A stretch of 64,000 nt of DNA from a bacterium (lineage in GTDB: Bacteria; Bacteroidota; Ignavibacteria; Kapaibacteriales; UBA7675), in contig JAUIKM010000014.1 in the NCBI GenBank assembly GCA_030430495.1, positions 1 through 64,000 on the forward strand, in the 5' to 3' direction. The notes beneath the pieces were generated by a model that was given only the letters and a program-made list of their open reading frames with translations, ran no database searches and was not told the origin of the DNA. Shown here piece after piece: positions 33,383-53,281 of the stretch. The position numbers and the translations under genes were made by a program. Each line of letters starts with the position of its first letter. Positions within the stretch are counted from its first letter, which is position 1.

Positions 33383-33931
33383 ATGAAACGCATGAATATC
33401 TTACTCGCAGCGGCATTTGCCGTTCTGTTTACGTTTTCGTTTACCACACAGCAAGTAATGGCACAGCCCGGCGGATCGGCCAGCGCTGTCGGTGTTGTAA
33501 GCGTTATTCCGTCCAAAGGTCCGGCCACAACGATCGACACGCAATTTGACGTCACGTGGGATGACTTTGTCGAGGTGAACCCCGACCTGCGCCGCGCGAA
33601 TATCGGCGACGCATCAGTTGAAAACGCGCTGTTCCAGGTTGAAACTGAAGTTGGCCCTGAGAACTGGATCGAACTGCGCCGCGACAACGTCACACTGCGC
33701 TACTGGGTCTGGGTATGCCACCGCGTCCGCATCTGCCGCTGGTACTGCGGATGGTGCTGCATCCCGACCTACTACACGATTTGCTGGCGTTCGCGTGCCG
33801 CCTATGTGGCATGGGAGCCGGGTCTGGTCGTCGATCTTGACGTTGTTGACAATGTCGATTTTGAAGACGCCAATGGCGAAATTCTGACGGTTGAAGCCGA
33901 TGCCTCGACCGTATCCTTTGTTGTACCCTGA
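33383..33931 (+). CDS. Secreted Cys/Trp-motif protein, paralogue 1
   Basis: Not a family I recognise. The 182-residue precursor has a clear signal peptide (MNILLAAAFAVLFTFSF, cleavage after VMA) and an acidic mature chain. Residues about 38-95 precede a remarkable segment at 108-136: WVCHRVRICRWYCGWCC, then IPTYYTICWR. It holds six cysteines and five tryptophans. The C-terminal third looks like beta strands (LVVDLDVVDNVDFEDANGEIL) and ends in VSFVVP. The same architecture recurs in the gene 500 bp downstream. In both proteins the mature cysteines are confined to this segment, so it may bind metal, form a disulfide-tied hairpin or insert into membrane; these are guesses. It has no T9SS domain and no lipobox. 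Confidence 0.85.
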   Translation: MKRMNILLAAAFAVLFTFSFTTQQVMAQPGGSASAVGVVSVIPSKGPATTIDTQFDVTWDDFVEVNPDLRRANIGDASVENALFQVETEVGPENWIELRRDNVTLRYWVWVCHRVRICRWYCGWCCIPTYYTICWRSRAAYVAWEPGLVVDLDVVDNVDFEDANGEILTVEADASTVSFVVP

Positions 33932-34433
33932 CGCCGCGGCGTTTGTTTAATACAACATTGCGACCAGGATCGCAATTTAACATCATCGGTTTGAAGAAGC
34001 CGGAGGTTCCGTCACCGAGTAACATCAGGCGCGCGAAAACTCTTCCAGCCCAAAGAGGAGTCCGCGCGGACGGAACTGCCGGCTTCGGCCGATCAGGCAA
34101 AATGCAAAGCAGGCGTCTCTTTCAGGCGTCGATGAAATACAAAGTCAGAACGCCTGGATCTGACGTCGGAATTGCGCTCGGCAGCAGCCCCGCAATGGGC
34201 AGCGGGGCTGTTGGCCGGCTGAAAACTTCTCTTGTTTATAAAGCGGATTGTTGCATATAACGCAGCCACGAGTACCATACTACCAATCAGTCCATCACCG
34301 CCTTCGTGTTAACATTTGAGCCGACATCACTAAATGACCGAAACGCGTACCGTGCACGGCGGCATTTACCGATCCATCGAATACCACGAAGAGTACGGTG
34401 TTAATACCCACTCTTTATTACAGGAACAATTCC
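33932..34433. other. Intergenic region between the two paralogues, with hairpin
   Basis: About 500 bp. CAGCCCCGC (34185-34193) and GCGGGGCTG (34202-34210) form a perfect 9-bp stem without a clear U-tract, possibly an attenuator or inefficient terminator. An AT-richer stretch at 34230-34330 probably holds the promoter of the second gene. No reading frame is convincing. Confidence 0.5.
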
Positions 34434-34979
34434 ATGAATTCCACGAAGTTTTTCTCACTCTTGATTATTGCAGCTTTTTGTGCCTGCCCGCTGTTTCTGC
34501 AGGCGCAGGACGCCGGCGATGCCACCGGACAAGCCAGTCTTTCGGCTACTTTTGGCGACAGCGACAACACCAATGCAACGGAACTGAATTCGAGCATTGA
34601 CGTTTCCTGGGAGACGTTCGAGGAAGTCGACAACAAAACGCGACGCGCGCAGATTGTCAGCTCGTCGATGAAGAACATCCTGTTTGAAACGGAAACCAGC
34701 GACGACGGAAAATCGCGTATCGACATCGTTGAAGAGTCGACAGGCCGCTATCGCGTTTACGTTTACCACGTTGTGCGCATTTGCCGCTGGTATTGCGGCT
34801 GGTGCTGTGTACCTAGTTATTACCTCGTGTGTTTCCGCGCCACCTCGCTGATAAGTGATTGGAAATCCGGCACGCGTCTGACGCTGGCGTTGGAAGAGGA
34901 TGTGACGTTTGAAGACAGCGACAAAAACACGATTACCGTGGTCGCCGGCAATAGCACGCTCGGCTTTGTAGTTCCGTAA
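34434..34979 (+). CDS. Secreted Cys/Trp-motif protein, paralogue 2
   Basis: A 181-residue paralogue of the preceding gene. Signal peptide FFSLLIIAAFCACPLFLQAQ. The mature protein shows matching blocks in the same order: SIDVSWETFEEVDNKTRRAQI (compare TQFDVTWDDFVEVNPDLRRANI), NILFETET, then the motif segment at about 112-136 (VVRICRWYCGWCC, VPSYYLVCFR), and a C terminus TLGFVVP. The 12 residues VRICRWYCGWCC are identical in both, while flanking sequence has diverged heavily, so this core is under strong constraint. Start 34434 (MNSTKFF) gives a proper signal; the frame opens at 34398. It ends just before a very strong hairpin terminator. Function unknown. Confidence 0.87.
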   Translation: MNSTKFFSLLIIAAFCACPLFLQAQDAGDATGQASLSATFGDSDNTNATELNSSIDVSWETFEEVDNKTRRAQIVSSSMKNILFETETSDDGKSRIDIVEESTGRYRVYVYHVVRICRWYCGWCCVPSYYLVCFRATSLISDWKSGTRLTLALEEDVTFEDSDKNTITVVAGNSTLGFVVP

Positions 34980-35011: not shown

Positions 35012-35049
35012 AAAAAACGCCGGTGCATGCAGATGCACCGGCGTTTTTT
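35012..35049. terminator. Strong bidirectional terminator
   Basis: A 17-bp perfect stem: A6 plus CGCCGGTGCAT pairs with ATGCACCGGCG plus T6 around loop GCAG. The A- and T-runs make it work on both strands. It ends the Cys/Trp-motif paralogue 2 transcript and faces the convergent propeller gene. Confidence 0.92.
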
Positions 35050-35261: not shown

Positions 35262-38200
35262 TTAACGAAGCAGGAGAATCGATGTCGTTTCAGTTCCCAC
35301 ATCTGTCTGCAGGCGCAGCATGTACACGCCGCCGGCGATGTTGTCGACGGCAGGCACAGCGTCGGAAAGCGGTATGTTAAACAGTCCCGCCGGCAGATCG
35401 CCGTTAAAGAGCGTTGCGACAAATTGTCCGCGGAGGTCAAGCAGTTCGACAGCTACGTGACCGGGGCGTTTAACTTCGAGTTCAACCCGTGCTTCGGTGG
35501 TCGCCGGGTGTGGATAAACTCCGGCAATCGCAGCGCCGGCGGACATGGCGGCGCCGCTGTTGTGTACGGAGGTTGCGTTTGGTTGTACGTCCAGGTTGTC
35601 AATGGTCCAGCCCCAGGCATTGGCGGCGGCGTCCGTTCCGAGGCGGAAGCGGACAAAGATCAAATCACCCGGATTGAAGGTCTCCTGCAGATTGATAACG
35701 CGGCGCTCAAAGAGGGCGGTGCTGCCCGGCGTCGTGGAGTTGCCTCCTCCATCCAGGCCTGCGCGATACGAGGCCGAGGCAGATTCGTAGGCGCGGGAGT
35801 CGTACCCGGGAATCAGCGGCACCCAGTTGCACCCGTCCGAACTCCCCTCAACGATCGCAAAGTCAAAAAAGCTCTGGTCCTGCCAGTCGGGGGCGGTTCC
35901 CTCTTCGACCAACACAACCTCGTCGTATTCAAGTGTTGCATTGTCCTGCGCCACGCGGATGGCAAAACGCGGCCACAATACCATATTGCTTGCATTCGGG
36001 TAGGGATGCGGTGTGTGGAAAGCGTGATTGGAAAAACCCGGCGGCGTGGCGACCGACCAGCCGAACATGCGGAAGTCGGCGGCGTCGGTGGAGTCGTTCA
36101 GATCTGTTGAGTAGGACACCACTTCTTCCGGCGACCAGATAAAGATCTGTCGATCCGGCGAGCGATACACCTGCCCGTCCACAAAAGCCTGGGCATAGAC
36201 CGTCACGACGCCCTCACTCTCTATCGCGCTTTCAAAGTGGTAGTTGGCCGGTTCGTCATTTGCTTCCAGCGTTCCGATGCGGAATCCGTTTCTGAAGATC
36301 CTCGTGGAGTCGTAGGCGCTGCGCTGGTCTACGGACACCGTCAGCATGCCGTCGGGACTGACCGCGAGTTTGCCGATACGCGGCATCAGGGGACGCTGCG
36401 GCGCGACGTAGTCGTCCAGTTGCGTCAGTTCGGTCGACCAGATGCCGCGTCCGTAGGTGGCGGCCACGACCTGGTTGTCCACAACATTAAGCTGGAAGAT
36501 GCAGACGGCGGGCAGACCGTTGTCCGAGTACTCCCAGGAAGCGCCGCCGTCGGACGTCGTGAACAATCCAATCTCGGTCGCCGCCCACATGACCTGCGGA
36601 TCAAAGGGCATCACCAGCAGGTCAAAGACCGCCACGTCGGGAAAGCCGGTCGTACTGACGCCGTCGACAAATCCGCTGAAATCTTCCCAGCTGCTGCCGA
36701 AATCGGTTGTGCGCAGGATTTTGCCCTGGCGCGGCGCGGAATACAGCAGGTAAGCGGTGCCGGGTTCGTCGGGATGCGTGGCGATGCCCGACGCTTCGAT
36801 GAAGCCATCGGGGATGTTGTGCGTGACTTCTTCAAATCGCGAGCCGCCGTCGGTCGAGATATGCACGCCGCCGGAGCGGTTTGACGGCGCATCGACGGTG
36901 ACTTTGGACGAGGCCCAGACGACACGCGCATCAGCCTGAGACGCCTCGACATTACAGAATGGTCGATAGCCAAGCCAACTCGCCGGAATGGCTGTTTGCG
37001 ACCACGTCAGTCCAAAGTCGTCCGAACGCAGAATGCCGTTGGCATTCACACTGAAAACCAGGTCTGGGTCCATGCGCGACTGCGCCACCTTGGTAATAAA
37101 CGAGGAGCGCACGTTGCCGCCGGGAATGACACGCAGCCAGTTTTTACCGCCGTCGGACGAGCGATGGAAAATGTTGAACTGGGAGGTTGCCAACAGCAGG
37201 TTCCCGTCGCGTTTATTCCAGGCTACTTCAAATCCGTCGCCGCCACCGGCCGGGTTCCAGGGCGTCGCCGCGGTTGGGTTTGAAGGTGAATACACACTGC
37301 CGTTGTCCTGTAGTCCGCCGATGTAAGCGTCTTCTCCCGGTTTTTTGTCTGCGCCGTAGAACTGGCTTGTACCCATTCCCACCAGGTGGACCCAGTTCGT
37401 TCCGCCGTCCTGCGAATAGCCGACACCGCCGTCATTTGCAACCACGATGCGAAATGTCTGGTTGGCGTGATCGGGAATAGTAACAAGGTCGTGCTGGTCG
37501 GAGTGGACACGACCGAGCCCCGAGTTATTGGCCAGCCACCAGGTGAGCGGCGAGGCCAGGCGATTGAGATTTTGCGTGTCGACATCGATGCGATAAATGT
37601 TAACACCGCCGACAAAGACAACATCCGGGTCAAAGGGATGGACGACGATTGTGTTGTCGAACCAACCGGCCGTATACATTCCGGGAGTAGCGCCGGACTG
37701 TCCAAAGGCGTTAAACCAGTTCGGGTCGGCGCCGGTGTCCGGCAGCTCAACCCAGTTGTCGCCGGCGTCGGTAGTCATGAAAATGTCGGAAATTCCGCGC
37801 GGTCGTTCAACCGCGGCATAGAGGCGGTTCGGATCGCTCGGTGAAATGGCGAGCTCGGTGCGCACGCTGACGCCTGCCAGTCCAAACCCGCCGTCGGTGG
37901 GAAGGCCGACATCGCCGGGCAGAGCAAAGTTATCGGCTGAAATGGTCCAGGTATCGCCGGCATCGACAGACCTGATGACTCCGACCTCGTTAACGGCGGC
38001 GTAGAGTTTGTTGAAGTCGGAAGGGTCGTAGATGATCTGCTGGACGCGGTTGTCGGTATTGGCCGGCAGGACGCCTTCCGGATCAAACACCAGCGTCCAG
38101 GATTCCCCGCCGTCGGTTGACTTGTAGATGCCGCTGTGTTTGGCGGCCGGCGGTTTGGCGTACTGATGCGCCCGCGAATCGTTGCCGCACAGGAGAACGA

Positions 38201-38978
38201 CGTCGGGATTTGCGGGATCGACGACAATGCGATTGATGGCGCCGAACAGCTTGCCGTCGGCGGTGGAGGCCAACTGCCGCCAGGTCTGCCCGTGGTCGGT
38301 CGATTTCCAGACGCCCGATCCTTCGATATCAACGACGCGACCGTAGCCCATCCCGGTTCCGGCATAGAGAATGTCTGGATTTGACTGCGACTGTTCGAGT
38401 GAACTGGTCGAGAGGTTGGGAAGATCCGCGGTCATATCGGACCAGTTCTGGCCCTGGTCGCTGGTGTACCAGATTCCGCCGCCGACCGATGCTATGAACC
38501 ACGAATTGCCGCCGGGGTCGCCCGCATCCACGACAATAGCACGGGCGCGACCGCTGATATTGCCGGGGCCGCGCTCCGTCCAGGGCAGGGGATCGCCGGC
38601 AATCACATCGCCGCTGTTTTTTCGGGCCAGGGCTTTGCGGCGTTCTTCGATGCGATAACCGGGGGAATAGGTTTGTCCGTCGGCGCCTGTTTTAATTTCG
38701 GCCATCGCTTCGATTAACGCTCCGGGGTTTTCGGCTTTGATGCGGTCTTTCGACTGTTTGGCCGCCAGTTTGTTCAGCGCCGCCCGGATCTCGGCCGCCG
38801 CCTGTGAACCTGGTTCGGCGTCGGCCAACATTTCCTGCAATTCGGCCTGCATCTGACCGGCGGATGTCACTCCACTAAACCTTGGTGAACTGTTGTTAAA
38901 CGGATTGGTTAATACGACAAAACCGGTTAACAGACACGTCAATCCCAGGGACCAAAAAAGTAGTTTTTTCGTCCTCAT
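35262..38978 (-). CDS. Large secreted BNR/Vps10-like beta-propeller protein with T9SS sorting domain
   Basis: A 1238-residue exported protein. It has an N-terminal hydrophobic signal (LLFWSLGLTCLLTGFVVLT), a propeptide-like helical region (40-125), and then about a dozen Asp-box-type propeller blades. Examples are WYTSDQGQNWSDM, WKSTDHGQTWRQL, YKSTDGGESWTLV, FMTTDAGDNWVEL, FHRSSDGGKNWLR, ILRTTDFGSSWEDF and LFTTSDGGASWEY. These form a double sialidase/Vps10-like propeller (about 135-860). Next come a fibronectin-like stretch, a jelly-roll-like domain (about 960-1130) and the C-terminal T9SS sorting domain (VYPHPATTEARVELEV to GVYMLRL). It is probably cell-surface or released. In related proteins these propellers bind glycans or proteins; no catalytic residues for sialidase are visible. 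Confidence 0.9.
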   Translation of the reverse strand: MRTKKLLFWSLGLTCLLTGFVVLTNPFNNSSPRFSGVTSAGQMQAELQEMLADAEPGSQAAAEIRAALNKLAAKQSKDRIKAENPGALIEAMAEIKTGADGQTYSPGYRIEERRKALARKNSGDVIAGDPLPWTERGPGNISGRARAIVVDAGDPGGNSWFIASVGGGIWYTSDQGQNWSDMTADLPNLSTSSLEQSQSNPDILYAGTGMGYGRVVDIEGSGVWKSTDHGQTWRQLASTADGKLFGAINRIVVDPANPDVVLLCGNDSRAHQYAKPPAAKHSGIYKSTDGGESWTLVFDPEGVLPANTDNRVQQIIYDPSDFNKLYAAVNEVGVIRSVDAGDTWTISADNFALPGDVGLPTDGGFGLAGVSVRTELAISPSDPNRLYAAVERPRGISDIFMTTDAGDNWVELPDTGADPNWFNAFGQSGATPGMYTAGWFDNTIVVHPFDPDVVFVGGVNIYRIDVDTQNLNRLASPLTWWLANNSGLGRVHSDQHDLVTIPDHANQTFRIVVANDGGVGYSQDGGTNWVHLVGMGTSQFYGADKKPGEDAYIGGLQDNGSVYSPSNPTAATPWNPAGGGDGFEVAWNKRDGNLLLATSQFNIFHRSSDGGKNWLRVIPGGNVRSSFITKVAQSRMDPDLVFSVNANGILRSDDFGLTWSQTAIPASWLGYRPFCNVEASQADARVVWASSKVTVDAPSNRSGGVHISTDGGSRFEEVTHNIPDGFIEASGIATHPDEPGTAYLLYSAPRQGKILRTTDFGSSWEDFSGFVDGVSTTGFPDVAVFDLLVMPFDPQVMWAATEIGLFTTSDGGASWEYSDNGLPAVCIFQLNVVDNQVVAATYGRGIWSTELTQLDDYVAPQRPLMPRIGKLAVSPDGMLTVSVDQRSAYDSTRIFRNGFRIGTLEANDEPANYHFESAIESEGVVTVYAQAFVDGQVYRSPDRQIFIWSPEEVVSYSTDLNDSTDAADFRMFGWSVATPPGFSNHAFHTPHPYPNASNMVLWPRFAIRVAQDNATLEYDEVVLVEEGTAPDWQDQSFFDFAIVEGSSDGCNWVPLIPGYDSRAYESASASYRAGLDGGGNSTTPGSTALFERRVINLQETFNPGDLIFVRFRLGTDAAANAWGWTIDNLDVQPNATSVHNSGAAMSAGAAIAGVYPHPATTEARVELEVKRPGHVAVELLDLRGQFVATLFNGDLPAGLFNIPLSDAVPAVDNIAGGVYMLRLQTDVGTETTSILLLR

Positions 38979-39467
38979 AATGCCTCACGTACTGATATGG
39001 GGAAAACGATTAAAGAGTAGCTATCGGCAGCCCCTGAAAGCATTGCGTGCGGCGATCCGTCCAACGCCGCGAAATGGAGTTGTGTATATAGGTTAGACGA
39101 TTGGCAGGCGTATCAATGCACGCACCGCCGCGGTGCACGCGAGCAGCACCGACCTTTAAGGCTAGTTAAATTGAAGTAGCACATGCCGGTGTTTAATCGC
39201 TTTGTGTAATGATCCATCCTGTGTGCCCACGACGAACCCGGCATATGCTGTGTATGGAGAGGTTGACAAGCGGCCAAACAAAAGGGTTACATGCGCACGT
39301 AAAAAAATGCAAAAATCAATCCCTGTGCATAAAGGACCGGCGATGGCATGAACACAGCAGAAACGGCCGATCGTTGGCGATGAGTGGAGCGTTTGGCTGG
39401 TTAAACCGGCGCATGTCGTCGACTGATATTCCCGTTGTCCGGCCGCCGTCCGGCCGCCTTGAATCAT
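38979..39467. other. Gene-free region upstream of the propeller gene
   Basis: About 490 bp between two minus-strand genes. It holds the promoter of the propeller gene and an A-rich patch around 39300-39320. Open frames here (39162-39467, 39209-39673) look like chance frames. Two GTTTAA/TTAAAC hexamers are present. Confidence 0.5.
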
Positions 39468-40103
39468 CTACTCTGAGTCGCGACGCAGGAGACCAAACGC
39501 GAAGTCGCGGCCGAGCTCCTGCTTGTAGGCCAGGTGAATCCACATCATCGCAAAAGGCTCCAGGTAGCGCGCGGCATAGAGCGGTCCCGCGTCGACGGCG
39601 TCAAAACCGATTTCGGCCGCGAGATCGAGAACTGTCCGGCGCGCGTTGTCGTCGTCGCCGCAAACCAGCATGAGTGCTTTGCGTCCATTGAAGTCCGGAT
39701 TGCGCATGTTCTCCGCGCCGGTGCTGTTGAACGCTTTTACCAGCCTGGCCTGCGGCGCCAGCGCTGCCAGGTGTTCCGCGGCGGAGGTTTCCGTGCCGAC
39801 GGCCAGGCCCTGCAAGCCGGGATTGAGCGGGTTGGTGACGTCCACCAGAATACGGCCGCTCAGATCGCCGGCGGCGGCAATCGCTTCCGCCGCCGCGGTC
39901 CATGGTGTGGCCAGAACAACGATGTCGGCGTCGCTGCAGGCGGCTTCTATATCTTTGATGTCGGCATTCGGGTGCGCGAGGCGTTCTTTCAGGTTCGCGT
40001 CGTCGGGGCGGCGGACGCCGAAACAGATGGAATGTCCGTTGGCCGCCCAATGCTCGCCGAGAGCTGTGCCGACGTTGCCGGCGCCGATAATTGCAATATT
40101 CAT
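39468..40103 (-). CDS. NADPH-dependent F420 reductase-like protein
   Basis: A Rossmann-fold oxidoreductase of 211 residues. The dinucleotide-binding loop is MNIAIIGAGNVGTALGEHWA, with GxGxxG at residues 8-13. FGVRRPDD follows strand 2, where Arg residues suggest NADP preference. DADIVVLATPWTAAAEAI and the RILVDVTNPLNPGLQGLAVG block are typical of the FNO/NpdG group and its non-F420 relatives. VKAFNSTGAENM matches the conserved K-x-F-N-T element. In Bacteroidota, which generally lack F420, such proteins act on other substrates. It is the third gene of an operon behind bacilliredoxin and PAP2 phosphatase, 33 bp after the latter. Confidence 0.88.
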   Translation of the reverse strand: MNIAIIGAGNVGTALGEHWAANGHSICFGVRRPDDANLKERLAHPNADIKDIEAACSDADIVVLATPWTAAAEAIAAAGDLSGRILVDVTNPLNPGLQGLAVGTETSAAEHLAALAPQARLVKAFNSTGAENMRNPDFNGRKALMLVCGDDDNARRTVLDLAAEIGFDAVDAGPLYAARYLEPFAMMWIHLAYKQELGRDFAFGLLRRDSE

Positions 40104-40136
40104 GGTTGTTTCCTTTCGAATCACTTAAACAGCGGG

Positions 40137-41078
40137 TCAGTCCAGCTGCGGAACAACAAAACCAAAAACGGTTCCAACGATTGCGCCGACGACAATATCA
40201 CTGGGAAAATGTTTGCCTGCTTCGTAGCGCAGGTAGCCGGTCAGCGCGGCCGTGCCGAAGCTCAGGACGCCGACGAGATAGCGCGAGTCGCGATCCGGAT
40301 AGAGCTCCGCATATGAACTTGTTAAAAATGCCGCTGAAGTAAAAGCGATTGATGTATGTCCGGAGTAAAATGATCTGGTGTAGTCCGGTTTGTAGCTGAG
40401 TTTTTTATCCAGACTCAGATCAGTGTTAAACAGATAAGGCCGCCGACGCGAAATGAGATTTTTAACCAGAAGATTCAGGCCGACGCTCAGCGAAAGCGTC
40501 TGAGCGTAAGCCCCGATGTAGTCGCCCGCGCCGCCCGGGTCCAAAGCGGCGGATTTATCCGGCATAAAAAACGCGCCGGTCGCCAGCGGTGCGGCCACGC
40601 TCAGGTACATGCCCCAGTCGCTCAGGTCGGAAGCGGCGGGACTCCAGTTGTAGGCCGCCGAGCGATCCATCTGCTCAAAGAAGAGGACGGACCGCACTGA
40701 ATCGGGTGTTAAACGCTGTATCTCCGCGCCGCTGATGTCGTCCGTACCGATCAGGTAATGACTGAACAGGGCCAGCGCCACGCCGCCCGCGATGCCGATC
40801 AGTTCGGGTTCGTTAAACTCGTAGACCTGCCTGAAACTGCTGCGGGCGTCGATCACCCGCAGGCCGCGTCCGGCGGCGTAGAGCATCAGTGCGGCCTGCA
40901 ATGACTCGGAATCCGCGTCCCGCGGCTGTGATAAATGCGGCAGGATTTCTGCTTCGGCGGCGCGCAGCTGCGGGACAGATGCAATGACTTGCAGCGTCGC
41001 ACACAGTGACAAACAAAAAAATGCCTTTAAAAGGCGAAAGCCGCCAACCGCCGGAGAGCGATCAGAAAGAAAAAACAT
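40137..41078 (-). CDS. PAP2-family membrane phosphatase
   Basis: A lipid-phosphate phosphatase of 313 residues with a signal/anchor (LLKAFFCLSLCATLQVIASV). The three PAP2 motifs are complete: KNLISRRRPY (motif 1), RSFYSGHTS (motif 2, with catalytic His) and RYEAGKHFPSDIVVGA (motif 3, R-x5-H-x3-D). The N-terminal 110 residues form a periplasmic extension before the membrane domain. Likely substrates are prenyl diphosphates or phosphatidic acids; the family cannot distinguish them. The MFFLSD start at 41078 lies 13 bp after the bacilliredoxin stop, so the two are translationally close. The signal-peptide codons happen to contain one copy of the dispersed GACAAACA motif. Confidence 0.92.
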   Translation of the reverse strand: MFFLSDRSPAVGGFRLLKAFFCLSLCATLQVIASVPQLRAAEAEILPHLSQPRDADSESLQAALMLYAAGRGLRVIDARSSFRQVYEFNEPELIGIAGGVALALFSHYLIGTDDISGAEIQRLTPDSVRSVLFFEQMDRSAAYNWSPAASDLSDWGMYLSVAAPLATGAFFMPDKSAALDPGGAGDYIGAYAQTLSLSVGLNLLVKNLISRRRPYLFNTDLSLDKKLSYKPDYTRSFYSGHTSIAFTSAAFLTSSYAELYPDRDSRYLVGVLSFGTAALTGYLRYEAGKHFPSDIVVGAIVGTVFGFVVPQLD

Positions 41079-41091
41079 GTGCGGAAACCGT

Positions 41092-41559
41092 TTAAACGTC
41101 AAGAACTTCGGCGTGCAGAGCCTTGTCCAGATTGTCGGCGTTGATTTGCCCGTGGGAAGCGTGCCAGCGCACGTCTCCATCGACCAACAAAAAGACCTGT
41201 GGGCTTTCGTGCCGGATGCCGAACTCCTCAGCCACCCGGTTGGAGAGATCGCGCGCACCCTGGACCACTATGAGAGCCGCCGTTTCGCCCTCGTGCGCCG
41301 CAAGAAAGCGGCTGAATTCCTGACAGGCATAGGCCGAAACGGAACAGGCAACCGAATGTTTGAAAATCCAGCGGCGGCCGCCGCCCTGCAGAAAAGCGGT
41401 CAGTTCGTCCTGCGTTTGCGGTTGGTCGAAGCCGGGAGGGAGTTCACCTGGATGCATGCGCGTTCTCAGATTGGTTATGGCTGCGTAAAAAAGAGCCGCA
41501 CCCAACAAGCCCATTATCACGACATCGACGAAGACATTTGTTGTTGTCATAACCGCCAT
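41092..41559 (-). CDS. Membrane-anchored YtxJ-type monothiol bacilliredoxin
   Basis: YtxJ proteins remove bacillithiol from S-bacillithiolated proteins. The 155-residue protein has an N-terminal membrane anchor (FVDVVIMGLLGAALFYAAI), which is unusual because most members are soluble, and then a thioredoxin-like domain (45-155). The diagnostic block is WIFKHSVACSVSAYACQEF: Cys72 in the K-H-S-x-x-C-x-x-S context is the redox cysteine, and there is no second cysteine of a CxxC. The C-terminal ESPQVFLLVDGDVRWHASHG keeps the cis-Pro equivalent. This implies that the organism uses bacillithiol. It is the first gene of a three-gene operon with the PAP2 phosphatase and an F420-type reductase. Confidence 0.85.
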   Translation of the reverse strand: MAVMTTTNVFVDVVIMGLLGAALFYAAITNLRTRMHPGELPPGFDQPQTQDELTAFLQGGGRRWIFKHSVACSVSAYACQEFSRFLAAHEGETAALIVVQGARDLSNRVAEEFGIRHESPQVFLLVDGDVRWHASHGQINADNLDKALHAEVLDV

Positions 41560-41728
41560 TGATGTTTGGTAGGGAATAGCCGGTATTGCTCAGACAATAC
41601 GACTCCGTGACAGCCGGATTGTTGTCTACTTGCTAAGCGAACGTTAAAATGTGGAATTGGCATTACAAAATCAGCATTGTGTAGCAGGCACGGCGGGAAA
41701 GGCCGCGCAAAGAGGTACATTTGAGCAG

Positions 41729-42502
41729 ATGAAATCCGGCGACCGCGTCATATCGTTCGACTACAGCGACAGCATTCGCATTCTGCGCGCCATTCAGCGC
41801 GCCATTGTACGGGCGGGCCTGAATTGTGAGTTCGACTCCGCCGTTTTGCGCTGCATTTTCCGCGACGCTGAGGGACGCGAGTACGCCCGTTTCCGCTGTC
41901 CGCCCGCTTTCCCCGTCGCATCCGCACAAAGCGATCCGGCGGACTACAGCCGCCAACTGAACGCCGAGCCGCCCGAGGCTTTTGTTTTGGTTCTGCAGTC
42001 CGGCCAGGCGGCGCTGGCCCGCACGCGACGCGGCCTGCTGTACGACCACCGCATCATCCGCAAATACATGGTGCGCAAAAGCCAGGGAAAGTCGCAACTG
42101 ACGCATCTGAAAACGAAAGGAAAATCGCGTCTGGGATCGCGCATCAGGCTGCAGCAGTCGGTCGAGTTTTTCGAGGAGATCAACGGCTGGCTGGCGGAAC
42201 AGGACGAGGAGTGTACGCCCGGACGCATTCTGTACGCCTGCGCCGCGAGTCTGTGGCCGCACCTCTTTCACAGTCGCGTCACCCCGCCTTTTGACAAAAA
42301 AGATGCTCGCCTGATGAAGATTCCGCGCGATTTCCGCAAGGCGACCCTGGAGGAACTGGAACGCATGTGCCGTTTTGTCCTGCGCGGCCAACTGGTGTTC
42401 AATCCGGCCGCGGCGGAGGTTCAGGCGCTGCTGCGGACGCTGGAAATCGCGGACGACGGCGCGGATAAAAGCGACCGCCACGAGCTTGACGACGAGTTCT
42501 GA
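41729..42502 (+). CDS. VLRF1-type (Vms1/ANKZF1-like) peptidyl-tRNA release factor homologue
   Basis: VLRF1 domains are eRF1-related and release nascent chains from stalled large subunits in ribosome quality control. Bacterial VLRF1 families, including ones in Bacteroidota, have been described by sequence analysis. In this 257-residue protein the core is RRGLLYDHRIIRKYMVRKSQ with GKSQ at 120-123. It fits the GxxQ catalytic motif, followed by the basic KTKGKSRLGSRIRLQQSVEF and FFEEINGWL helix, as in Vms1 (RKxGGSQ, then G-rich basic loop, then helix). The rest (160-257) is a helical tail with no zinc finger. I favour the ATG at 41729 over the GTG at 41651. It stands alone and diverges from the bacilliredoxin operon. 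The assignment rests on motif pattern only. Confidence 0.68.
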   Translation: MKSGDRVISFDYSDSIRILRAIQRAIVRAGLNCEFDSAVLRCIFRDAEGREYARFRCPPAFPVASAQSDPADYSRQLNAEPPEAFVLVLQSGQAALARTRRGLLYDHRIIRKYMVRKSQGKSQLTHLKTKGKSRLGSRIRLQQSVEFFEEINGWLAEQDEECTPGRILYACAASLWPHLFHSRVTPPFDKKDARLMKIPRDFRKATLEELERMCRFVLRGQLVFNPAAAEVQALLRTLEIADDGADKSDRHELDDEF

Positions 42503-42620
42503 CGGGCCCAGCCCACGATCAGCATTGAACGGTTTGGTCAGCTCGGTGCCTCACCGTAAGTTCCAGCGCTCTTTTTGCTTCTGCCATGTTTTACCAACCA
42601 TTAATCACTGGGATTACCGT

Positions 42621-42863
42621 ATGATTCTCAACAACGCAACCAGCTCCACGGCTACGTGGTCTGTCAGCAATTCCACTGCATCCGAAGCCGGCTCCAAAAG
42701 CGCCAACTCCTGGGGAACCATTGTACCGCCTTCGGGGCCATTTAATTACTCGGCGCAGTTCTCGGGACCGGAAGGCACGGCCAAGGCGGACAATATCACA
42801 AATCCAGACGCCTGCCTTACCTACACCGGCACCGAATTGCTGGTGACTTATCCGGGCGCATAA
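42621..42863 (+). CDS. Small Ser/Thr/Asn-rich orphan protein
   Basis: An 80-residue protein starting MILNNATSSTATWSVSNSTA and ending LTYTGTELLVTYPGA. It has no signal peptide, no membrane span and a single cysteine. Composition is rich in S, T, N, A and G with regularly spaced aromatics, suggesting an all-beta small protein. I do not recognise it. The ATG at 42621 follows a stretch without coding character, and a strong terminator 66 bp past the stop supports a real short transcript. It may also be transcribed from the VLRF1 gene 118 bp upstream. Confidence 0.65.
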   Translation: MILNNATSSTATWSVSNSTASEAGSKSANSWGTIVPPSGPFNYSAQFSGPEGTAKADNITNPDACLTYTGTELLVTYPGA

Positions 42864-42928
42864 TTGCCGCCGCGGCGCGGAATCTGTCCACATCGTTCGC
42901 TCGTGATTCAGGCTGACAGTGCACAATT

Positions 42929-42975
42929 CAAGCCCCTCACGTTCAGGCTTTGCCTGCGTGGGGGCTTTTTTCTTT
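42929..42975 (+). terminator. Strong terminator after the small protein
   Basis: AAGCCCC-TCACG pairs with CGTG-GGGGCTT around a loop, followed by TTTTTTCTTTTTG. It terminates the small-protein transcript. Confidence 0.85.
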
Positions 42976-44147
42976 TTGTTCGGCCCGCCGCGTTGGGCGC
43001 GGCTGCGCGAGCGAAATCGCGCGTGCGACGGTCGGTTGCAATCGCACATCTTCCCGGCGATTCAGTTATTCAATGCGTGCAACAACGACGCGGCAACAAA
43101 ATTCAGGTGGAGAGGACATGCGCCGCCGGGTGCGGTCGGCGGCGGAACGGCGCATCGCAGGCGCGGCGCAATTTGAGCGTCGAGCACAAACACTCCGGCC
43201 GTTCAGGCGTAACCAACGCCCGTTCAGACACGATGAGCGCATCGTTTAACTTTTTACGCTGGGAAAGTAGGGGTGGTGGTATTAAGCTTGTCGTGACGGC
43301 GCGCGGCATGCGGTGCGCCGCTCCGCGACGGCATTTACTCAGGAGAATCTGCACGAAAACATTGCAGGGTGGGAGGAGTGTGTTGTGAGCGCGGAGGTAG
43401 ATACCGTGGCGGCGGCGGGGTGGGCCCCTGGATCAAGCCCGAAGTGTGCCCAAAATCGAAGTCGACGCGCCGGGAGTCGCCCTAAGTCCTTTTATATCAA
43501 CATCTTACGTCGATGCGGGTAAGCGCCCGAACCGCATGATTCCCAACGCATCGGCAGATTTTTCACCGTCAGATTGCTCGATTTGCAGCGGACGTTGCGA
43601 CCGCCACGGCTCTGCTCTTCGACGTTCGCACTCAGCTTTTGTCCGCGTGAAACATCCCCGGCACCGTGCGCGACAGCGCTCGCGGAACCGGACGCGTCAT
43701 GGAGACTCAATGCTTGTTGATGCTGCCCGGAATGATAAGGGCGCGATTGCGACGGAAACCGCAATAACCCGCGCGCGCCGTCTGCTCGGCGACACTGCCG
43801 GCAGGCGGTAAAAAGCGTCCGTTTGTGACGCCATTTCCTGTGAGAGCCTATTCCTCTCGCCATGCGCGATCACTCATGCATGGCCCCGGAGTCGCGCGAT
43901 CATTAACCCCAGGGTTGAACAACAGTTGTTGTCTGAAATGACATGTCGACACATGGTAGTTGAAAAGTTTTGGGAAAGTCCGATAAAAACGCAACAATCC
44001 GGAACGGCCCGCGTAGCGCCGAAAATTCGGAGATTCCCGCCGCTGTCAACAGCGGACACAAAACGCCGCCTGAAGCCCACAGGGGTATTACCGCTCAACT
44101 CCGGACTAAATCACTATTGTCAACTAAAAGTATTTCTACCGACGCTT
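42976..44147. other. Gene-free 1.2-kb region upstream of the PDZ gene
   Basis: No credible gene on either strand; the longest frames (43492-43863, 42864-43388) are compositionally random. Inverted repeats AACAAC-A-GTTGTT (43918-43930) and CATGT-CGAC-ACATG (43942-43955) lie about 200 bp before the PDZ gene and may be regulatory. An unusually long gap for this window; a decayed gene is possible but not recognisable. Confidence 0.5.
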
Positions 44148-45773
44148 ATGCAACGTGCACGAATCCCTTTGATTGGAGTTGTTACGTGCGCCATGCTTGC
44201 CATGACCATTGCGATTGGTTCAGGGACGGCGCAGGCAACGACATCCTCGGAAACTCCCGAAAAACAGGTTAACGTCAAAGTAGTCACAACCGACAACGGA
44301 ACGTCCGAAACAGTAGACAAAATCCTCACGCTCGACAAGAATGCTTCCATTGAGTCCATCCTGCGCGACATGGGTGTCATTGATGAATTCGGCCAGATTG
44401 CCGACAATGAATCCGTAGAAATCATCGTGCGCCGCAAGCGCCACGATGCACTGCTGCAAGACATCAACGTTCAGCTGGAGCCGGCGCCGGGCCCGCCTGT
44501 CTTCCGCACGCCGCCGGTCCAGACCGGCAGCGGCTTCCTGGGCGTTAATATCGCCGACGTGCGTGTTCTCGGCGATGCCGATCAAGGCACGAGCAAAATC
44601 GGCGTGGCCATTCGCTCGATTATTCCCAACACCGGTGCGGCCGATTCAGACCTGCAAGGCGGCGACGTGATCGTAAGCATCGACGGCATCCCCGTGGCGA
44701 GCGTCGATCAGATGGTCAAAACCATCCAGGCGCTCAAACCGGGCAGCAAAGTGGAAATCGAGTTTCTGCGCGACGACAAAAAGATGACGACCGAAGCGAC
44801 GTTGGGTTCGCGTGCCGAATACATGCAACGCCAGCGCGAGCAGAACATCGAGCGCATGTTGCACCGCGAGCGCGAGCGCAGCCAACGGCAACTCGAACGC
44901 AAATCCACTCCTTTTCTCGGAATCGGCCACAAGATCGGCCAGGGCGGCTCCACGGAAGTGACCTACGTCGTTCCCAATACCACGGCGCAAGAAATCGGCA
45001 TTCAGCAGGGCGACAAGATTGTCGGCGTCAACGGTAAAAAAGTCGGCAAACCGATGGAACTGCAAGTGATACTACGCCACTTCGTGACCGTCGGCGAGCC
45101 AATTACCGTCGACGTCGAACGCGACGGCGTCGTTCAAAGTCTCAGCGGCACAGCCAAAGCACGTGAAATGAGGATCCGCTCAAACGTGATGAGGGGTCAA
45201 TGGCACCGGGCTCCCTCCGTGGACATGGAAGAAGCTCAACGCAACATGGAAGAAGCCCGGGAAAACCTTGAGAAAGCCGCTGGTCAAATGGAAGAATACG
45301 CTGCTTTCTGGGAAAACGATTCCGAGATTGTGTTCCTCGAAGCGCCGCACATTGATCCGGATCTCTTTGCTGAACACATGGCCAAGTTCAACCTGGCTCC
45401 GATGGATCAGCCCGAAGTTATCCGCGAAGTGCGCGTCAGCATTTCCGTGCTGGACCTGGGACAGGAAGACATTAACACGCTCAGCCGCCAGATTGGCGGC
45501 GATCTGGCCAACGATCTTGAAGTCCAGGACCTGACGCTCTATCCGAACCCGAGTGATGGACGTTTTAACCTGAACTTTGAACTGCCGGGCGACGGCCTCA
45601 GCGTCGTGAAAATCTTCGACGTCGGCGGCAACGAGATCTATGCCGAAACGCTCAACGGCGTCGACGGCAACTACGAGCGCATGATTGATATCAGCGACAA
45701 ACCGACGGGCGCTTACTTCCTGCAGGTGACGCGCAACGGCCAGTCCTTCACGAAAAAACTGGTGATCGACTGA
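44148..45773 (+). CDS. Secreted double-PDZ protein with T9SS sorting domain
   Basis: A 541-residue exported protein. The signal peptide is IPLIGVVTCAMLAMTIAIGSG. Residues about 25-110 form an unidentified beta-rich domain (VNVKVVTTDNGTSETVDKIL). PDZ 1 (about 125-215) has GFLGVNIADV, TGAADSDLQGGDVIVSIDGI and VEIEFLRDDK. A charged helix (RQREQNIERMLHRERERSQ) links to PDZ 2 (about 250-335: FLGIGHKIGQGG, TTAQEIGIQQGDKIVGVNG). A second helix (EEAQRNMEEARENLEKAAGQ) follows, and the last 80 residues are a T9SS type A sorting domain (LTLYPNPSDGRFNLNFELPG to GAYFLQVTRNG, KKLVID). There is no protease domain, so it is an adaptor. The frame is open to 43926, but the start at 44148 gives the signal peptide. 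Confidence 0.88.
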   Translation: MQRARIPLIGVVTCAMLAMTIAIGSGTAQATTSSETPEKQVNVKVVTTDNGTSETVDKILTLDKNASIESILRDMGVIDEFGQIADNESVEIIVRRKRHDALLQDINVQLEPAPGPPVFRTPPVQTGSGFLGVNIADVRVLGDADQGTSKIGVAIRSIIPNTGAADSDLQGGDVIVSIDGIPVASVDQMVKTIQALKPGSKVEIEFLRDDKKMTTEATLGSRAEYMQRQREQNIERMLHRERERSQRQLERKSTPFLGIGHKIGQGGSTEVTYVVPNTTAQEIGIQQGDKIVGVNGKKVGKPMELQVILRHFVTVGEPITVDVERDGVVQSLSGTAKAREMRIRSNVMRGQWHRAPSVDMEEAQRNMEEARENLEKAAGQMEEYAAFWENDSEIVFLEAPHIDPDLFAEHMAKFNLAPMDQPEVIREVRVSISVLDLGQEDINTLSRQIGGDLANDLEVQDLTLYPNPSDGRFNLNFELPGDGLSVVKIFDVGGNEIYAETLNGVDGNYERMIDISDKPTGAYFLQVTRNGQSFTKKLVID

Positions 45774-45827
45774 TCTGAGACAGACAGTACGTGCAGCGCT
45801 TCAAGGCGCGGCACAGACGTGCAAATA

Positions 45828-45865
45828 AAGGGTGTGTCGGTTTCTGCCGGCACGCCTTTTTTTGT
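45828..45865 (+). terminator. Terminator of the PDZ-T9SS gene
   Basis: GGTGTGTCGG pairs with CCGGCACGCC (two G-U pairs) around a short loop, followed by a run of seven T. It lies about 55 bp after the stop. Confidence 0.8.
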
Positions 45866-45879
45866 GGCTTCGCTCGCGC

Positions 45880-45901
45880 TGACAAACAAAAATGGATTTG
45901 G
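45880..45901 (+). repeat. Dispersed repeat copy, GGATTTGG subtype
   Basis: TGACAAACAAAA followed by ATGGATTTGG. It matches the copy at 32694-32715 at 20 of 22 positions. It lies between a terminator and a small minus-strand gene. Confidence 0.75.
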
Positions 45902-45905
45902 TATT

Positions 45906-46091
45906 TCAGTGAAGGCGAGGATCGAGTTTGCCGCTGCCGCCGCATTTGCGACAGGTTTCCTTCATCCGCACGCCCTCGTACCAACCGCGGCCATGGCAGG
46001 AGGGGCAGGCGTGGCGCATGTTGTGGATGATGCGCACGGCGGCATAGACAACGGCAGAAACAACGACCAGAACAAGCAGATAGCGAAACAT
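45906..46091 (-). CDS. Tiny membrane-anchored DnaJ-type zinc-finger protein
   Basis: A 61-residue protein. An N-terminal membrane span (YLLVLVVVSAVVYAAVRII) is followed by a short domain with two CxxCxGxG-type units, CPSCHGRGW (29-37) and CRKCGGSGK (47-55). Paired units of this kind form one zinc site in the DnaJ cysteine-rich domain, but here there is no J domain and no chaperone fold. Four Cys fit a single zinc ion. Topology suggests an anchored zinc knuckle, possibly on the cytosolic side. Function unknown; a role in protein quality control is a guess. It is flanked by other-strand genes, so it is a monocistronic small gene. Confidence 0.8.
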   Translation of the reverse strand: MFRYLLVLVVVSAVVYAAVRIIHNMRHACPSCHGRGWYEGVRMKETCRKCGGSGKLDPRLH

Positions 46092-46267
46092 GGCAACGCC
46101 GTAGAATGTCGGACAAAAACGGAGAAGGAAAATGTGTTTCGTACGAAACAGCCCGACAGACGACCGTGGTCCACAAAGCGTTTAAAAGGCAAACAATCCA
46201 AGCGCTTGCGCGATCAGATTGTCCGCCAGTCAAGAAGAATTTCACCGTTTTCGGAAATTTCGCCGCA

Positions 46268-46636
46268 TCAGGCCCGCGAATGGAAAGCAACTTTGTTGCC
46301 TTCGGAATCCATGAAAATCGCAAAGTAGCCGATTTCATCGGTGATTTTGGTCTTCGGCATCAGCACTTTCCCGCCGGCGCTTTCCACGCGGCTCAGCGGC
46401 GTGTCCAGGTTGTCGCCGCCATTGAGGAAAATCAGCGAACCGTCGGCGGAGGGCACATAACCTTCACCGGCCACTACGGCGCCGGAGACGCCGCCTTCGG
46501 CATAGGGGAAAAATGCCATTTGGCTGCCCATCATTTCCTGGGCGGGCATATCGGTGGCGAGCACTTCGGAGTAGAACTTGACGGCGCGGTCGAATTTGGC
46601 CGCCGGGATTTCAAACCAATTGATGGCGTTTGCCAT
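46268..46636 (-). CDS. VOC-family (glyoxalase-fold) protein
   Basis: A 122-residue single-module glyoxalase/bleomycin-resistance/dioxygenase-fold protein. It has the paired beta-alpha-beta-beta-beta units: NAINWFEIPAAKFDRAVKFY (start of the first), FFPYAEGGVSGAVV, then SLIFLNGGDNLDTPLSRVES and IGYFAIFMDSEGNKVAFHS. The opening WFEIPAAKFDRAVKFYSEVL is the pattern of YycE/PhnB-like small VOC proteins that are common in this group. The metal-ligand pattern is incomplete: the first strand lacks the usual His, so enzymatic activity is uncertain. Homodimerisation is expected. Confidence 0.9.
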   Translation of the reverse strand: MANAINWFEIPAAKFDRAVKFYSEVLATDMPAQEMMGSQMAFFPYAEGGVSGAVVAGEGYVPSADGSLIFLNGGDNLDTPLSRVESAGGKVLMPKTKITDEIGYFAIFMDSEGNKVAFHSRA

Positions 46637-46820
46637 GACTATTGTTCCTGGATAAATTGAAAGATCAGATCGGAGTTACGAAGGCCAATCTAGCTCGTTC
46701 CTGCAGGCCGCTAAAAACAAACTTTGGCCGGTTCGTAAACTTTCAAGCAGACCGGAATTGCGCCATAACGGCGATATTTTGCAAATTTGAGCGTTTTACC
46801 GTCTCTCAAACGTAGGTTTT

Positions 46821-48335
46821 ATGCCTCGCAACACAGACCTGTTCGACCTGATCAAGAGCATGACGCCGGCGGAAAAGCGTCAGTTGCGCCTCTCGGCGGG
46901 CAGCCGCGCGGACGACAGCAACTACCTGCAGCTCTTTGATGCGATCGACGCGCAGGAGGAGTACGACGAGGGCGCGATCAAGGGGCACTTTGCCGACAAG
47001 GCCTTTGTGCGTCAGCTGCACGTCACCAAAAACTACCTGTGGCGTCAGATCATGAAGTGCCTGCGTCCGCGTTACGGCGCGGCGTCGCGTCAGCACGAAA
47101 TCCGCGAACTGATTGTCGAGGCGGAGATTCTCTACGACCGCGAGCTCTTTGACCAGTGCCGCCGCATTCTGGACAAAGCGGAAAACCTGGCGCGCGAGTT
47201 TGAGTGTTTTGCCGAGCTGCTGAGCGTGCTGAGCTGGCAGCGCAAACTGACGATCCAGCTTTCGACCGTCGGCAACAACCGCAACCTTCTGCTGGACGTG
47301 ATCGGGCAGGAAAACGAGTTGCTGCACGTGCTGCTCAATCTCAACGACTACAACCGACTTTCGGCCGGCATTTACGACACGCTGGACCGCGAGCGCGCCA
47401 ATCCCGACGATCCCGAGGTGCGGCGCGAGCTGGCCATGCTGGAATCCGCCGACCAGGCGCTGAGCCTCAACGCGCGCATCCTCTACTACTACGCGGCGCA
47501 GACCTACGCTTTTTTCCAGAACCGCCACGACCAGGCCTGCGAAGCCATTGAAGCCAAGATCGCCATGCTGGAGGGCCGTCCGCGCTACATCCGCGAATAC
47601 CCGCGCGTCTACGTTACGACGCTCACCAATTACGCCGCCGTCCTGCTGCATCTCAAACGCTATGACAAACTGGAGGCGACGCTGCAGCGCATTCGCGAGC
47701 TGCCGGAGGAGCTGCGCTGGAAGGAGCGCAGCCCCACGATGGTCAAGGTGTTGTTGCAGACATACAATCTGGAGCTGGAGATGTACCGCGATCGCGGCTT
47801 AAACAAACGCGGCCTGGCGCTGCAGGAAGAGACCACGGCGCTGTTAAACAGATACCGCGTCAGCGCCGCACGCGACTACCACATTCTGTTCGCGTATCAA
47901 TACGCCTACCTGCATTTCCGCCAGGGCGCGTTTAACGAGGCGCTGGAGCAGCTTAACATGATGTTCAGCTTCGGCAAGGAGACCGAGCGCATTCACGTGG
48001 CGGCATACGGCCACATGCTGCGTCTGCTGATTTACTTTGAGCTGGGGCACATTACGGTGCTCAAATACTCAATTGAATCGTACCGCCGCTACATTAACAA
48101 GCGCGCCGCGCCGATGCTGTTTGAGCGCGAGATTTTACGCTTTTTTGCGCGCATCTGCCAGGCTCCGCCGGACGACTACAACAGCATCCTGCACGAGTTG
48201 TGGCACAAGCTGTTCGACAGCGCCGACGGCATGGCGGCCGAGCACGCCGACCACTTTGCCCTGTTTAACGACTATCTGAACATTCGCCAATGGCTCGGCG
48301 AGCGACTTGACATTCTCTCCCGGCCCGCAGCTTGA
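46821..48335 (+). CDS. Conserved Bacteroidota protein of unknown function, helical-repeat
   Basis: A 504-residue, almost entirely alpha-helical protein without signal peptide. The opening TDLFDLIKSMTPAEKRQLRL followed by NYLQLFDAIDAQEEYDE and FVRQLHVTKNYLWRQIMKCL is a pattern I know from many Bacteroidota genomes as an uncharacterised family of similar length. The middle and C-terminal parts contain TPR-like helix pairs (LTNYAAVLLHLKRYDKLEATL, QYAYLHFRQGAFNEALEQL). The start region resembles a small DNA- or protein-binding helical domain. It is monocistronic. No function is proposed. Two L-N pairs use the rare-looking TTA-AAC codons at 47811 and 47844. Confidence 0.85.
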   Translation: MPRNTDLFDLIKSMTPAEKRQLRLSAGSRADDSNYLQLFDAIDAQEEYDEGAIKGHFADKAFVRQLHVTKNYLWRQIMKCLRPRYGAASRQHEIRELIVEAEILYDRELFDQCRRILDKAENLAREFECFAELLSVLSWQRKLTIQLSTVGNNRNLLLDVIGQENELLHVLLNLNDYNRLSAGIYDTLDRERANPDDPEVRRELAMLESADQALSLNARILYYYAAQTYAFFQNRHDQACEAIEAKIAMLEGRPRYIREYPRVYVTTLTNYAAVLLHLKRYDKLEATLQRIRELPEELRWKERSPTMVKVLLQTYNLELEMYRDRGLNKRGLALQEETTALLNRYRVSAARDYHILFAYQYAYLHFRQGAFNEALEQLNMMFSFGKETERIHVAAYGHMLRLLIYFELGHITVLKYSIESYRRYINKRAAPMLFEREILRFFARICQAPPDDYNSILHELWHKLFDSADGMAAEHADHFALFNDYLNIRQWLGERLDILSRPAA

Positions 48336-52603: not shown

Positions 52604-52981
52604 TCAGTCCGGACAGTCGATGCAGCAGTAGGTCACGGTGATCGTTACACCGCAGGAATAACCGCCCTTCACCACTTCGCGCTCAATGGAGCGAACGTGG
52701 ATGCCGCCGCAGCCGCGCGTGCGACATTCCTCGCGCGCGCATTGCAGCGCCGCGCGCGTCAGTTCTTCGGTTTTGGCTTCAATCGACGCGTCGTCGCATT
52801 CCGTGTGGCCGGCGCGCACGCAGGTCAGATAGTCCGTGTCGCATACGGGTTCGTCGCCCGTGTCGTTCTGCATCAGCATTTCAATGTGTACGGTCGGCTC
52901 TTCGGCGGGTGCGTCGGCATTGACGGCCGGAACGGCCAGAATCAGTGCAAAGCAGGCAAGTATCCCTATAAAGCGTTTCAT
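52604..52981 (-). CDS. Secreted ten-cysteine protein
   Basis: A 125-residue precursor with a signal peptide (FIGILACFALILAVPAVNA) and a mature chain of about 100 residues. The mature chain has ten cysteines in the order VCDTDYLTC, TEC, QC-x3-EC, RGCGG, YSCG, YCC and DC near the C terminus. An even number of Cys in a secreted small protein suggests five disulfides. The last third looks like beta strands (GGYSCGVTITVTYCCIDCPD). Not a family I recognise. The frame upstream to 53263 is not needed. It has its own terminator. Confidence 0.8.
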   Translation of the reverse strand: MKRFIGILACFALILAVPAVNADAPAEEPTVHIEMLMQNDTGDEPVCDTDYLTCVRAGHTECDDASIEAKTEELTRAALQCAREECRTRGCGGIHVRSIEREVVKGGYSCGVTITVTYCCIDCPD

Positions 52982-53281
52982 GTGAGTTATCCTGTAATGA
53001 GTTATAAGATCAGTTGGTTGGCCCATTGTGTGGGGGCAGTGTTTCATCCGCGCATTGCATTGGGTCGGCCGGTTGTTCCGCTGCGCTGATGCGTCGGCAA
53101 ACGGCGCCTGCGGCGGGTCGCGGGTACGCGCTCCGGCTTCGGTCTCAGAGTCGTGTCGGGTCGTCGGCAGTTGGTCGGTGCGCCGTCCGGGTGTTGAACT
53201 CGGCAGTTGATCGGATGCGCTGAACGCCGCGTCAAGTATACGCAGCCGCGCGTTGCCAAACAATTGATTGCGGTGGTAAAA
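52982..53281. other. Non-coding gap
   Basis: About 300 bp without a recognisable gene or structure; it should hold the promoter of the ten-cysteine protein. Confidence 0.4.

What the first reader, a model, noticed from the sequence alone, without database searches (positions are those of the whole stretch)
33383..34979. Two paralogous small secreted proteins with an invariant Cys/Trp/Tyr core
Both proteins have signal peptides and similar overall layout, but most sequence has drifted. In contrast, the twelve residues VRICRWYCGWCC are identical, followed by xPxYYxxCxR in both. Six to seven aromatic residues and five to six cysteines in about 25 residues is unusual. It suggests a disulfide-tied aromatic hairpin, a metal site or a membrane-inserting tip. 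I know no family with this motif. This is the most likely undescribed element in the window.
Basis: partly seen in the sequence, partly recalled or inferred. Interest (0 to 1): 0.75.

Follow-up and report, generated by a model that had tools for sequence, protein, structure and literature searches.

The report
Secreted barrel proteins with Cys/Arg/Trp hairpin
Two neighbouring genes of an uncultured Kapaibacterium-related bacterium encode exported acidic beta-proteins, from an undescribed and locally expanded family, in which one surface hairpin has become a positively charged cysteine- and aromatic-rich patch kept almost unchanged while the rest of the protein drifts; what it binds is unknown.

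Summary
P0001 (33383-33931 +) and P0002 (34434-34979 +) are 38% identical paralogues with signal peptides. They share the 12-mer VRICRWYCGWCC, with 5 of about 6 possible synonymous sites changed and no amino-acid change. No Pfam, NCBIfam, PHROG or PDB sequence family matches. The exact 12-mer was found only here. A reduced pattern (H-x2-R-x-C-x-W-x5-C-x3-Y-x3-C-x-R) recurs in a second tandem pair in another genus of the same family (Candidatus Kapaibacterium MAG JANQRB01). Both pairs belong to an undescribed secreted family with about 21 genes in this genome and about 10 in the other, nearly absent from about 790 sampled genomes of its class and phylum. The core replaces an ordinary beta-hairpin present in the paralogues. 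AlphaFold2 with four sequences (pLDDT 82) gives an up-and-down beta-barrel, with the core as two 13-residue strands around a WYCGW turn. The invariant Arg/Cys/Trp/Tyr residues project on the solvent face. The hairpin holds every cysteine, no Asp/Glu/Lys and net charge +3 to +5; the remainder is Cys-free and acidic. I favour a stapled, surface-exposed cationic/aromatic docking hairpin. A membrane-active hairpin is the most novel live rival. Disulfides, metal and ligand are untested.

The parts
33383..33931 (+). P0001, exported protein, 182 aa; signal peptide about residues 1-27 (VMA|Q), no lipobox, no T9SS tail
   Evidence: ORF and translation; AGGA-type ribosome site at about 33372; homologous to P0002
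33701..33796 (+). beta-hairpin of P0001 (YWVWVCHRVRICRWYCGWCCIPTYYTICWRSR): all 6 Cys, +5, no D/E/K
   Evidence: 12-mer VRICRWYCGWCC at 33725-33760
34434..34979 (+). P0002, exported protein, 181 aa; signal peptide about residues 1-24 (LQA|Q)
   Evidence: AGGA-type ribosome site at about 34422
34749..34844 (+). beta-hairpin of P0002 (YRVYVYHVVRICRWYCGWCCVPSYYLVCFRAT): all 5 mature Cys, +4, no D/E/K
   Evidence: 12-mer at 34773-34808
33932..34433 (+). 502-bp intergenic stretch between the two genes; no consensus promoter was found there, so the transcription unit is unresolved
   Evidence: the scan covers only sigma-70-type promoters
35012..35049 (+). probable intrinsic terminator after P0002: perfect 17-nt arms with A/T-rich ends
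   Evidence: inverted repeat I1; a terminator-like site of the convergent gene lies at 35235-35204

Best explanation
P0001 and P0002 are Sec-exported, acidic, soluble up-and-down beta-barrel proteins of the periplasm or cell exterior. They belong to a lineage-specific, repeatedly duplicated family. In this branch one exposed beta-hairpin, which in the paralogues is an ordinary polar NG-turn hairpin, has become a docking device. Its inner face stays aliphatic and packs on the barrel. Its outer face carries Arg, Trp/Tyr and Cys. Two Cys pairs near the tip (118/126 and 122/125 in P0001; the second pair moved to positions equivalent to 119/127 in the other genus) staple the turn. The invariant third strand Cys (134) stays free for a partner or a copy of the protein, except in P0001, where Cys112 could pair with it. 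The rigid cationic/aromatic face then binds an anionic, carbohydrate or protein partner at the cell surface. Shown: homology, export signals by inspection, selection on the core, position on a hairpin, segregation of charge and Cys. Inferred: barrel fold (moderate-confidence model), disulfide pairing, partner binding.
For: Conservation of the core with saturated synonymous change. The same pattern occurs in a second genus at about 26-33% overall identity. Homologous position: the hairpin 'YPA..V.I..NGK.YTS.DPLVL.S..SWP' in nine coreless paralogues. Face analysis: in those paralogues odd positions 85-95 are hydrophobic and even positions polar (best of 1,716 arrangements). The invariant R92, C94, W96, C102, Y106, C110 and R112 (P0001 residue number minus 24) all fall on the even, outer face; H89 is the exception. 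AF2 model: pLDDT 82, pTM 0.78, strands 83-95 and 101-113. Structure neighbours are eight-stranded barrels, DynF 6ubl Z 12.3. Charge split: hairpin +3 to +5, rest -8 to -17; no Cys outside the hairpin. Even Cys counts in 24 of 27 relatives point to disulfides in the family.
Against: No VKOR, DsbB or Thioredoxin_4 in either genome. PF01323 was found in G002 only, and its frame (CSWC) shows no clear signal peptide. The model rests on four sequences, two of five models agree well and three score 60-67, and the turn region has pLDDT about 65. Foldseek gave no match below 1e-3. No partner gene is conserved: the neighbourhoods of the two pairs share nothing clear. No direct evidence of ligand or location.
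Confidence: 0.45

Rival explanations
1. Membrane-active hairpin: the Arg/Trp/Cys hairpin works like a beta-hairpin antimicrobial peptide mounted on an acidic carrier, inserting into or disturbing membranes of other cells or anchoring the protein to an anionic membrane.
For: The hairpin matches the composition reported for that class: cationic, Arg instead of Lys, two or more Cys pairs (PMC13001179). Charge is sharply segregated from an acidic remainder, which could act as a shield.
Against: The hairpin is internal, with no processing site seen; its inner face appears to pack on the barrel; no immunity or export partner is conserved next to the genes.
Confidence: 0.18
2. Metal or cofactor site: the Cys cluster of the hairpin binds a soft metal or a thiol-linked cofactor in the periplasm.
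For: Five to six Cys and an invariant His in 32 residues; no disulfide-forming enzymes detected; one distant paralogue lies beside a multicopper oxidase.
Against: The three Cys invariant in all four proteins cannot reach one site on an extended hairpin (102 and 110 are 8 residues apart on one predicted strand); His89 is on the other face; the remaining Cys positions shift between genera.
Confidence: 0.17
3. Purely structural: the disulfides and aromatics only rigidify the hairpin or close the barrel mouth, and the barrel interior binds a hydrophobic ligand as DynF binds palmitate.
For: Nearest fold is DynF, an eight-stranded barrel with palmitate inside (PMC8725005).
Against: Strict conservation lies on the outer face of the hairpin, while the rest of the protein has drifted; a purely structural role does not need invariant surface Arg.
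Confidence: 0.15

Closest known systems
DynF (PDB 6ubl), eight-stranded up-and-down beta-barrel that binds palmitic acid
   Same: Best structural neighbour of the model: VIA-align Z 12.3, rmsd 3.1 over 151 residues
   Different: 4% identity, no sequence match; DynF belongs to an enediyne biosynthesis cluster and is dimeric (PMC8725005)
Beta-hairpin antimicrobial peptides (protegrin, tachyplesin, arenicin class)
   Same: Arg-only cationic, aromatic, Cys-rich hairpin of about 20-25 residues (class features in PMC13001179)
   Different: Here the hairpin is an internal, non-terminal element of a folded domain of about 155 residues; no release site seen and no activity data
Small outer-membrane beta-barrels (OmpA, OmpX, NspA, Ail)
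   Same: Up-and-down eight-stranded topology; VIA-align Z 8-11
   Different: Second-half strands of 4-6 residues look too short to span a membrane; strongly acidic; no C-terminal aromatic residue; some family members are two-domain repeats

Membership tests
Any Pfam-A / NCBIfam / PHROGs family | Profile score at or above the curated cut-off (for PHROGs, a significant E-value) | tested here: not met
   Pfam: no hit for P0001, best hit for P0002 E 0.036 and below cut-off; NCBIfam none near cut-off; PHROGs best E 0.06
Undescribed secreted family of the Kapaibacterium lineage (this report) | Profile match to coreless paralogues over most of the length | tested here: met
   The profile of the four core proteins alone finds the coreless paralogue on C71 at E 1.4e-7; the six-row profile finds the C60 members at E 1e-9 to 1e-11; same layout of strands and hairpin
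Beta-hairpin antimicrobial peptide | Cationic, Arg over Lys, at least two Cys pairs at least three residues apart, 11-25 residues | tested here: inconclusive
   Composition fits: against PMC13001179; that the Cys are paired is not shown
Beta-hairpin antimicrobial peptide | A free short peptide with antimicrobial activity | not testable with these tools
   The hairpin is internal to the domain; processing and activity need experiments
DynF-like beta-barrel | Eight-stranded up-and-down barrel topology | tested here: inconclusive
   Z 12.3 on a moderate-confidence model; best Foldseek E only 3e-3
Small outer-membrane barrel | All strands long enough to span the membrane | tested here: inconclusive
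   Model strands 125-130, 134-137, 143-146 and 152-156 are short, but the model is only moderately confident
T9SS cargo | C-terminal Por_Secre_tail domain | tested here: not met
   No Pfam hit of that kind in P0001 or P0002, whereas a nearby protein (43926-45773) has the domain

The most novel reading that the evidence does not exclude
A lineage-specific family of secreted acidic beta-barrels has evolved an Arg/Trp/Cys hairpin equivalent in design to animal beta-hairpin antimicrobial peptides, used as a membrane-active or surface-binding device by an uncultured bacterium.
Probability: 0.13. Interest if true: 0.75.

Novelty: new variant of a known kind. Interest (0 to 1): 0.45.

Why it matters
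It describes an unrecognised, strongly expanded secreted protein family (about 21 genes in one genome, seen in 2 of 3 genomes of the family) in a bacterial group known mostly from metagenomes. It also pinpoints one surface hairpin as the selected functional part. If the hairpin proves membrane-active, it would be a bacterial counterpart of a rare animal peptide design. If it forms disulfides without known Dsb or VKOR enzymes, it would raise the question of how these bacteria oxidise exported cysteines.

Tried and rejected
Chance similarity: rejected by codon evidence and the second genus. Recent duplication or gene conversion of the core: rejected, synonymous sites are as diverged in the core as elsewhere. 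Mobile or viral origin: no match in phage, plasmid or viral-contig collections. Known structures by sequence: none credible. Wider spread of the core: a 32-residue core profile over 395 phylum genomes gave, beyond the window pair (E below 1e-15), only weak matches (E 0.003 or worse), most in short or broken frames. Conserved neighbourhood: none found between the two pairs. RNA elements: no Rfam match in the window. Single-sequence structure prediction failed (pLDDT 34). Viral structure library gave no match below 1e-3. The first genome-contig scan with P0001 alone found nothing. The hit in a genome of the same class (G493) is a distant domain without the core. A paper search on disulfide formation in Bacteroidetes returned nothing.

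Full report
What was checked. The paralogues are 38% identical over their length. In the 12-mer the codons differ at about 0.79 of synonymous sites and at no nonsynonymous site. In the rest of the alignment nonsynonymous difference is 0.49 per site. The core is therefore old and selected. Outside it identity is 35%. Each gene has an AGGA-type ribosome site and ends its signal peptide in an A|Q cut (by inspection). The pair ends in a strong terminator-like repeat at 35012-35049.

Where it comes from. A degenerate scan of reference genomes returned one relative, a contig of a Candidatus Kapaibacterium MAG (JANQRB010000157.1). The window therefore most likely belongs to that lineage of Bacteroidota (for the taxonomy; T9SS sorting domain nearby).

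The family. No curated family matches. Searches within the genome show that the pair belongs to a larger set of exported proteins. Related layouts occur at C60 (three tandem genes), C71, C13, C31, C28 (three), C15 (two) and C63 (a tandem array of eight two-domain proteins), about 21 genes in all. G002 has about ten. G001, a third genome of the family, has none. In 395 genomes spread over the phylum and 391 over the class, only G000, G002 and a distant domain in one further genome (G493) are credible; two weak matches in the phylum set (E 7e-4 and 0.006) cover partial or broken frames. The link from core proteins to coreless paralogues is statistically sound: the four-sequence profile finds the C71 protein at E 1.4e-7.

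The core as a hairpin. In the family alignment the Cys/Trp/Tyr core occupies a hairpin present in the paralogues, typically 'VVKSFVRLEMNGKKYTTKDPLVLKS..SWP'. In nine coreless paralogues the first strand alternates: odd positions hydrophobic (mean hydropathy 2.7), even positions polar (-1.4), the best of 1,716 possible splits. In that register the residues kept in all four core proteins (R92, C94, W96, C102, Y106, C110, R112; add 24 for P0001 numbering) lie on the even face, the solvent side. His89 is on the other. For the second strand the face assignment assumes the symmetrical pairing implied by the predicted strand ends. AlphaFold2 with four sequences (window pair plus the L081 pair) gives pLDDT 82 and pTM 0.78, all-beta, with strands 83-95 and 101-113 around the turn WYCGW. 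A single-sequence run failed. The turn itself is at about 65, and three of five models are poorer, so side-chain geometry should not be over-read; coordinates could not be inspected.

Composition. The 32-residue hairpin contains every cysteine of the mature protein in all four proteins. It has no Asp, Glu or Lys and 3-5 Arg. The rest has net charge -8 to -17. Cys positions differ: 94, 98, 101, 102, 110 (plus 88 in P0001) in the window pair; 94, 95, 102, 103, 110 in G002. A reading consistent with both is two tip disulfides whose second pair has moved, plus an invariant odd cysteine at 110. This pairing is an inference. In its favour, 24 of 27 other family members have an even number of mature cysteines (the proteins are related, so the binomial value is not independent evidence). 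Against it, neither genome has a detectable VKOR, DsbB or Thioredoxin_4 protein, although the same searches ring in control genomes. The only PF01323 match, in G002, shows no clear signal peptide.

Fold neighbours and mechanism. The best structural neighbour is DynF, an eight-stranded antiparallel barrel with palmitate inside (Z 12.3; PMC8725005). Other barrels, designed and outer-membrane, follow. Foldseek itself reports nothing below 1e-3, so the shared feature is the barrel arrangement, not demonstrated kinship. Short strands in the second half and the acidic surface argue for a soluble barrel. I favour a surface docking role for the hairpin because selection acts on its outer face. A membrane-active hairpin is the most novel live alternative because its composition resembles that of beta-hairpin antimicrobial peptides (PMC13001179). 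A single metal centre is less likely on geometric grounds. None of these functions is shown.

Context. The neighbours are a TonB-dependent receptor, a phosphoglucomutase family enzyme and a convergent sortilin/BNR protein. The two tandem pairs do not share neighbours. No plasmid, phage or viral copy was found.

Noticed in passing
L063 and L095 (G000:C63, about 36900-47300): Tandem array of eight two-domain paralogues (about 320 aa each, C-x-G-x-G-x-C-x-I-x-I motif) of the same secreted family; the largest cluster in the genome, no Pfam match for the one scanned.
   Followed up: partly
L095 5437-7149: A 570-aa protein beside the array with a weak match to the family's hairpin/SWP region and a C-terminal transmembrane-like segment; a possible membrane-anchored partner of the array.
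   Followed up: no
G000 and G002 whole genomes: VKOR, DsbB and Thioredoxin_4 are not detected although the exported family carries paired cysteines; how exported thiols are oxidised here is unexplained.
   Followed up: partly
window 52604-53263, - strand: Another small exported protein rich in Cys near its C-terminus (CAREECRTRGCGG and YCCIDCPD), no Pfam match.
   Followed up: partly
window 49348-51477, - strand: Na+/H+ exchanger with TrkA-N domain and a C-terminal zf-UBP zinc finger (E 4e-14), which looked like an uncommon combination.
   Followed up: no
L024 7269-9104: Multicopper oxidase with a T9SS tail directly beside the C71 coreless paralogue.
   Followed up: no
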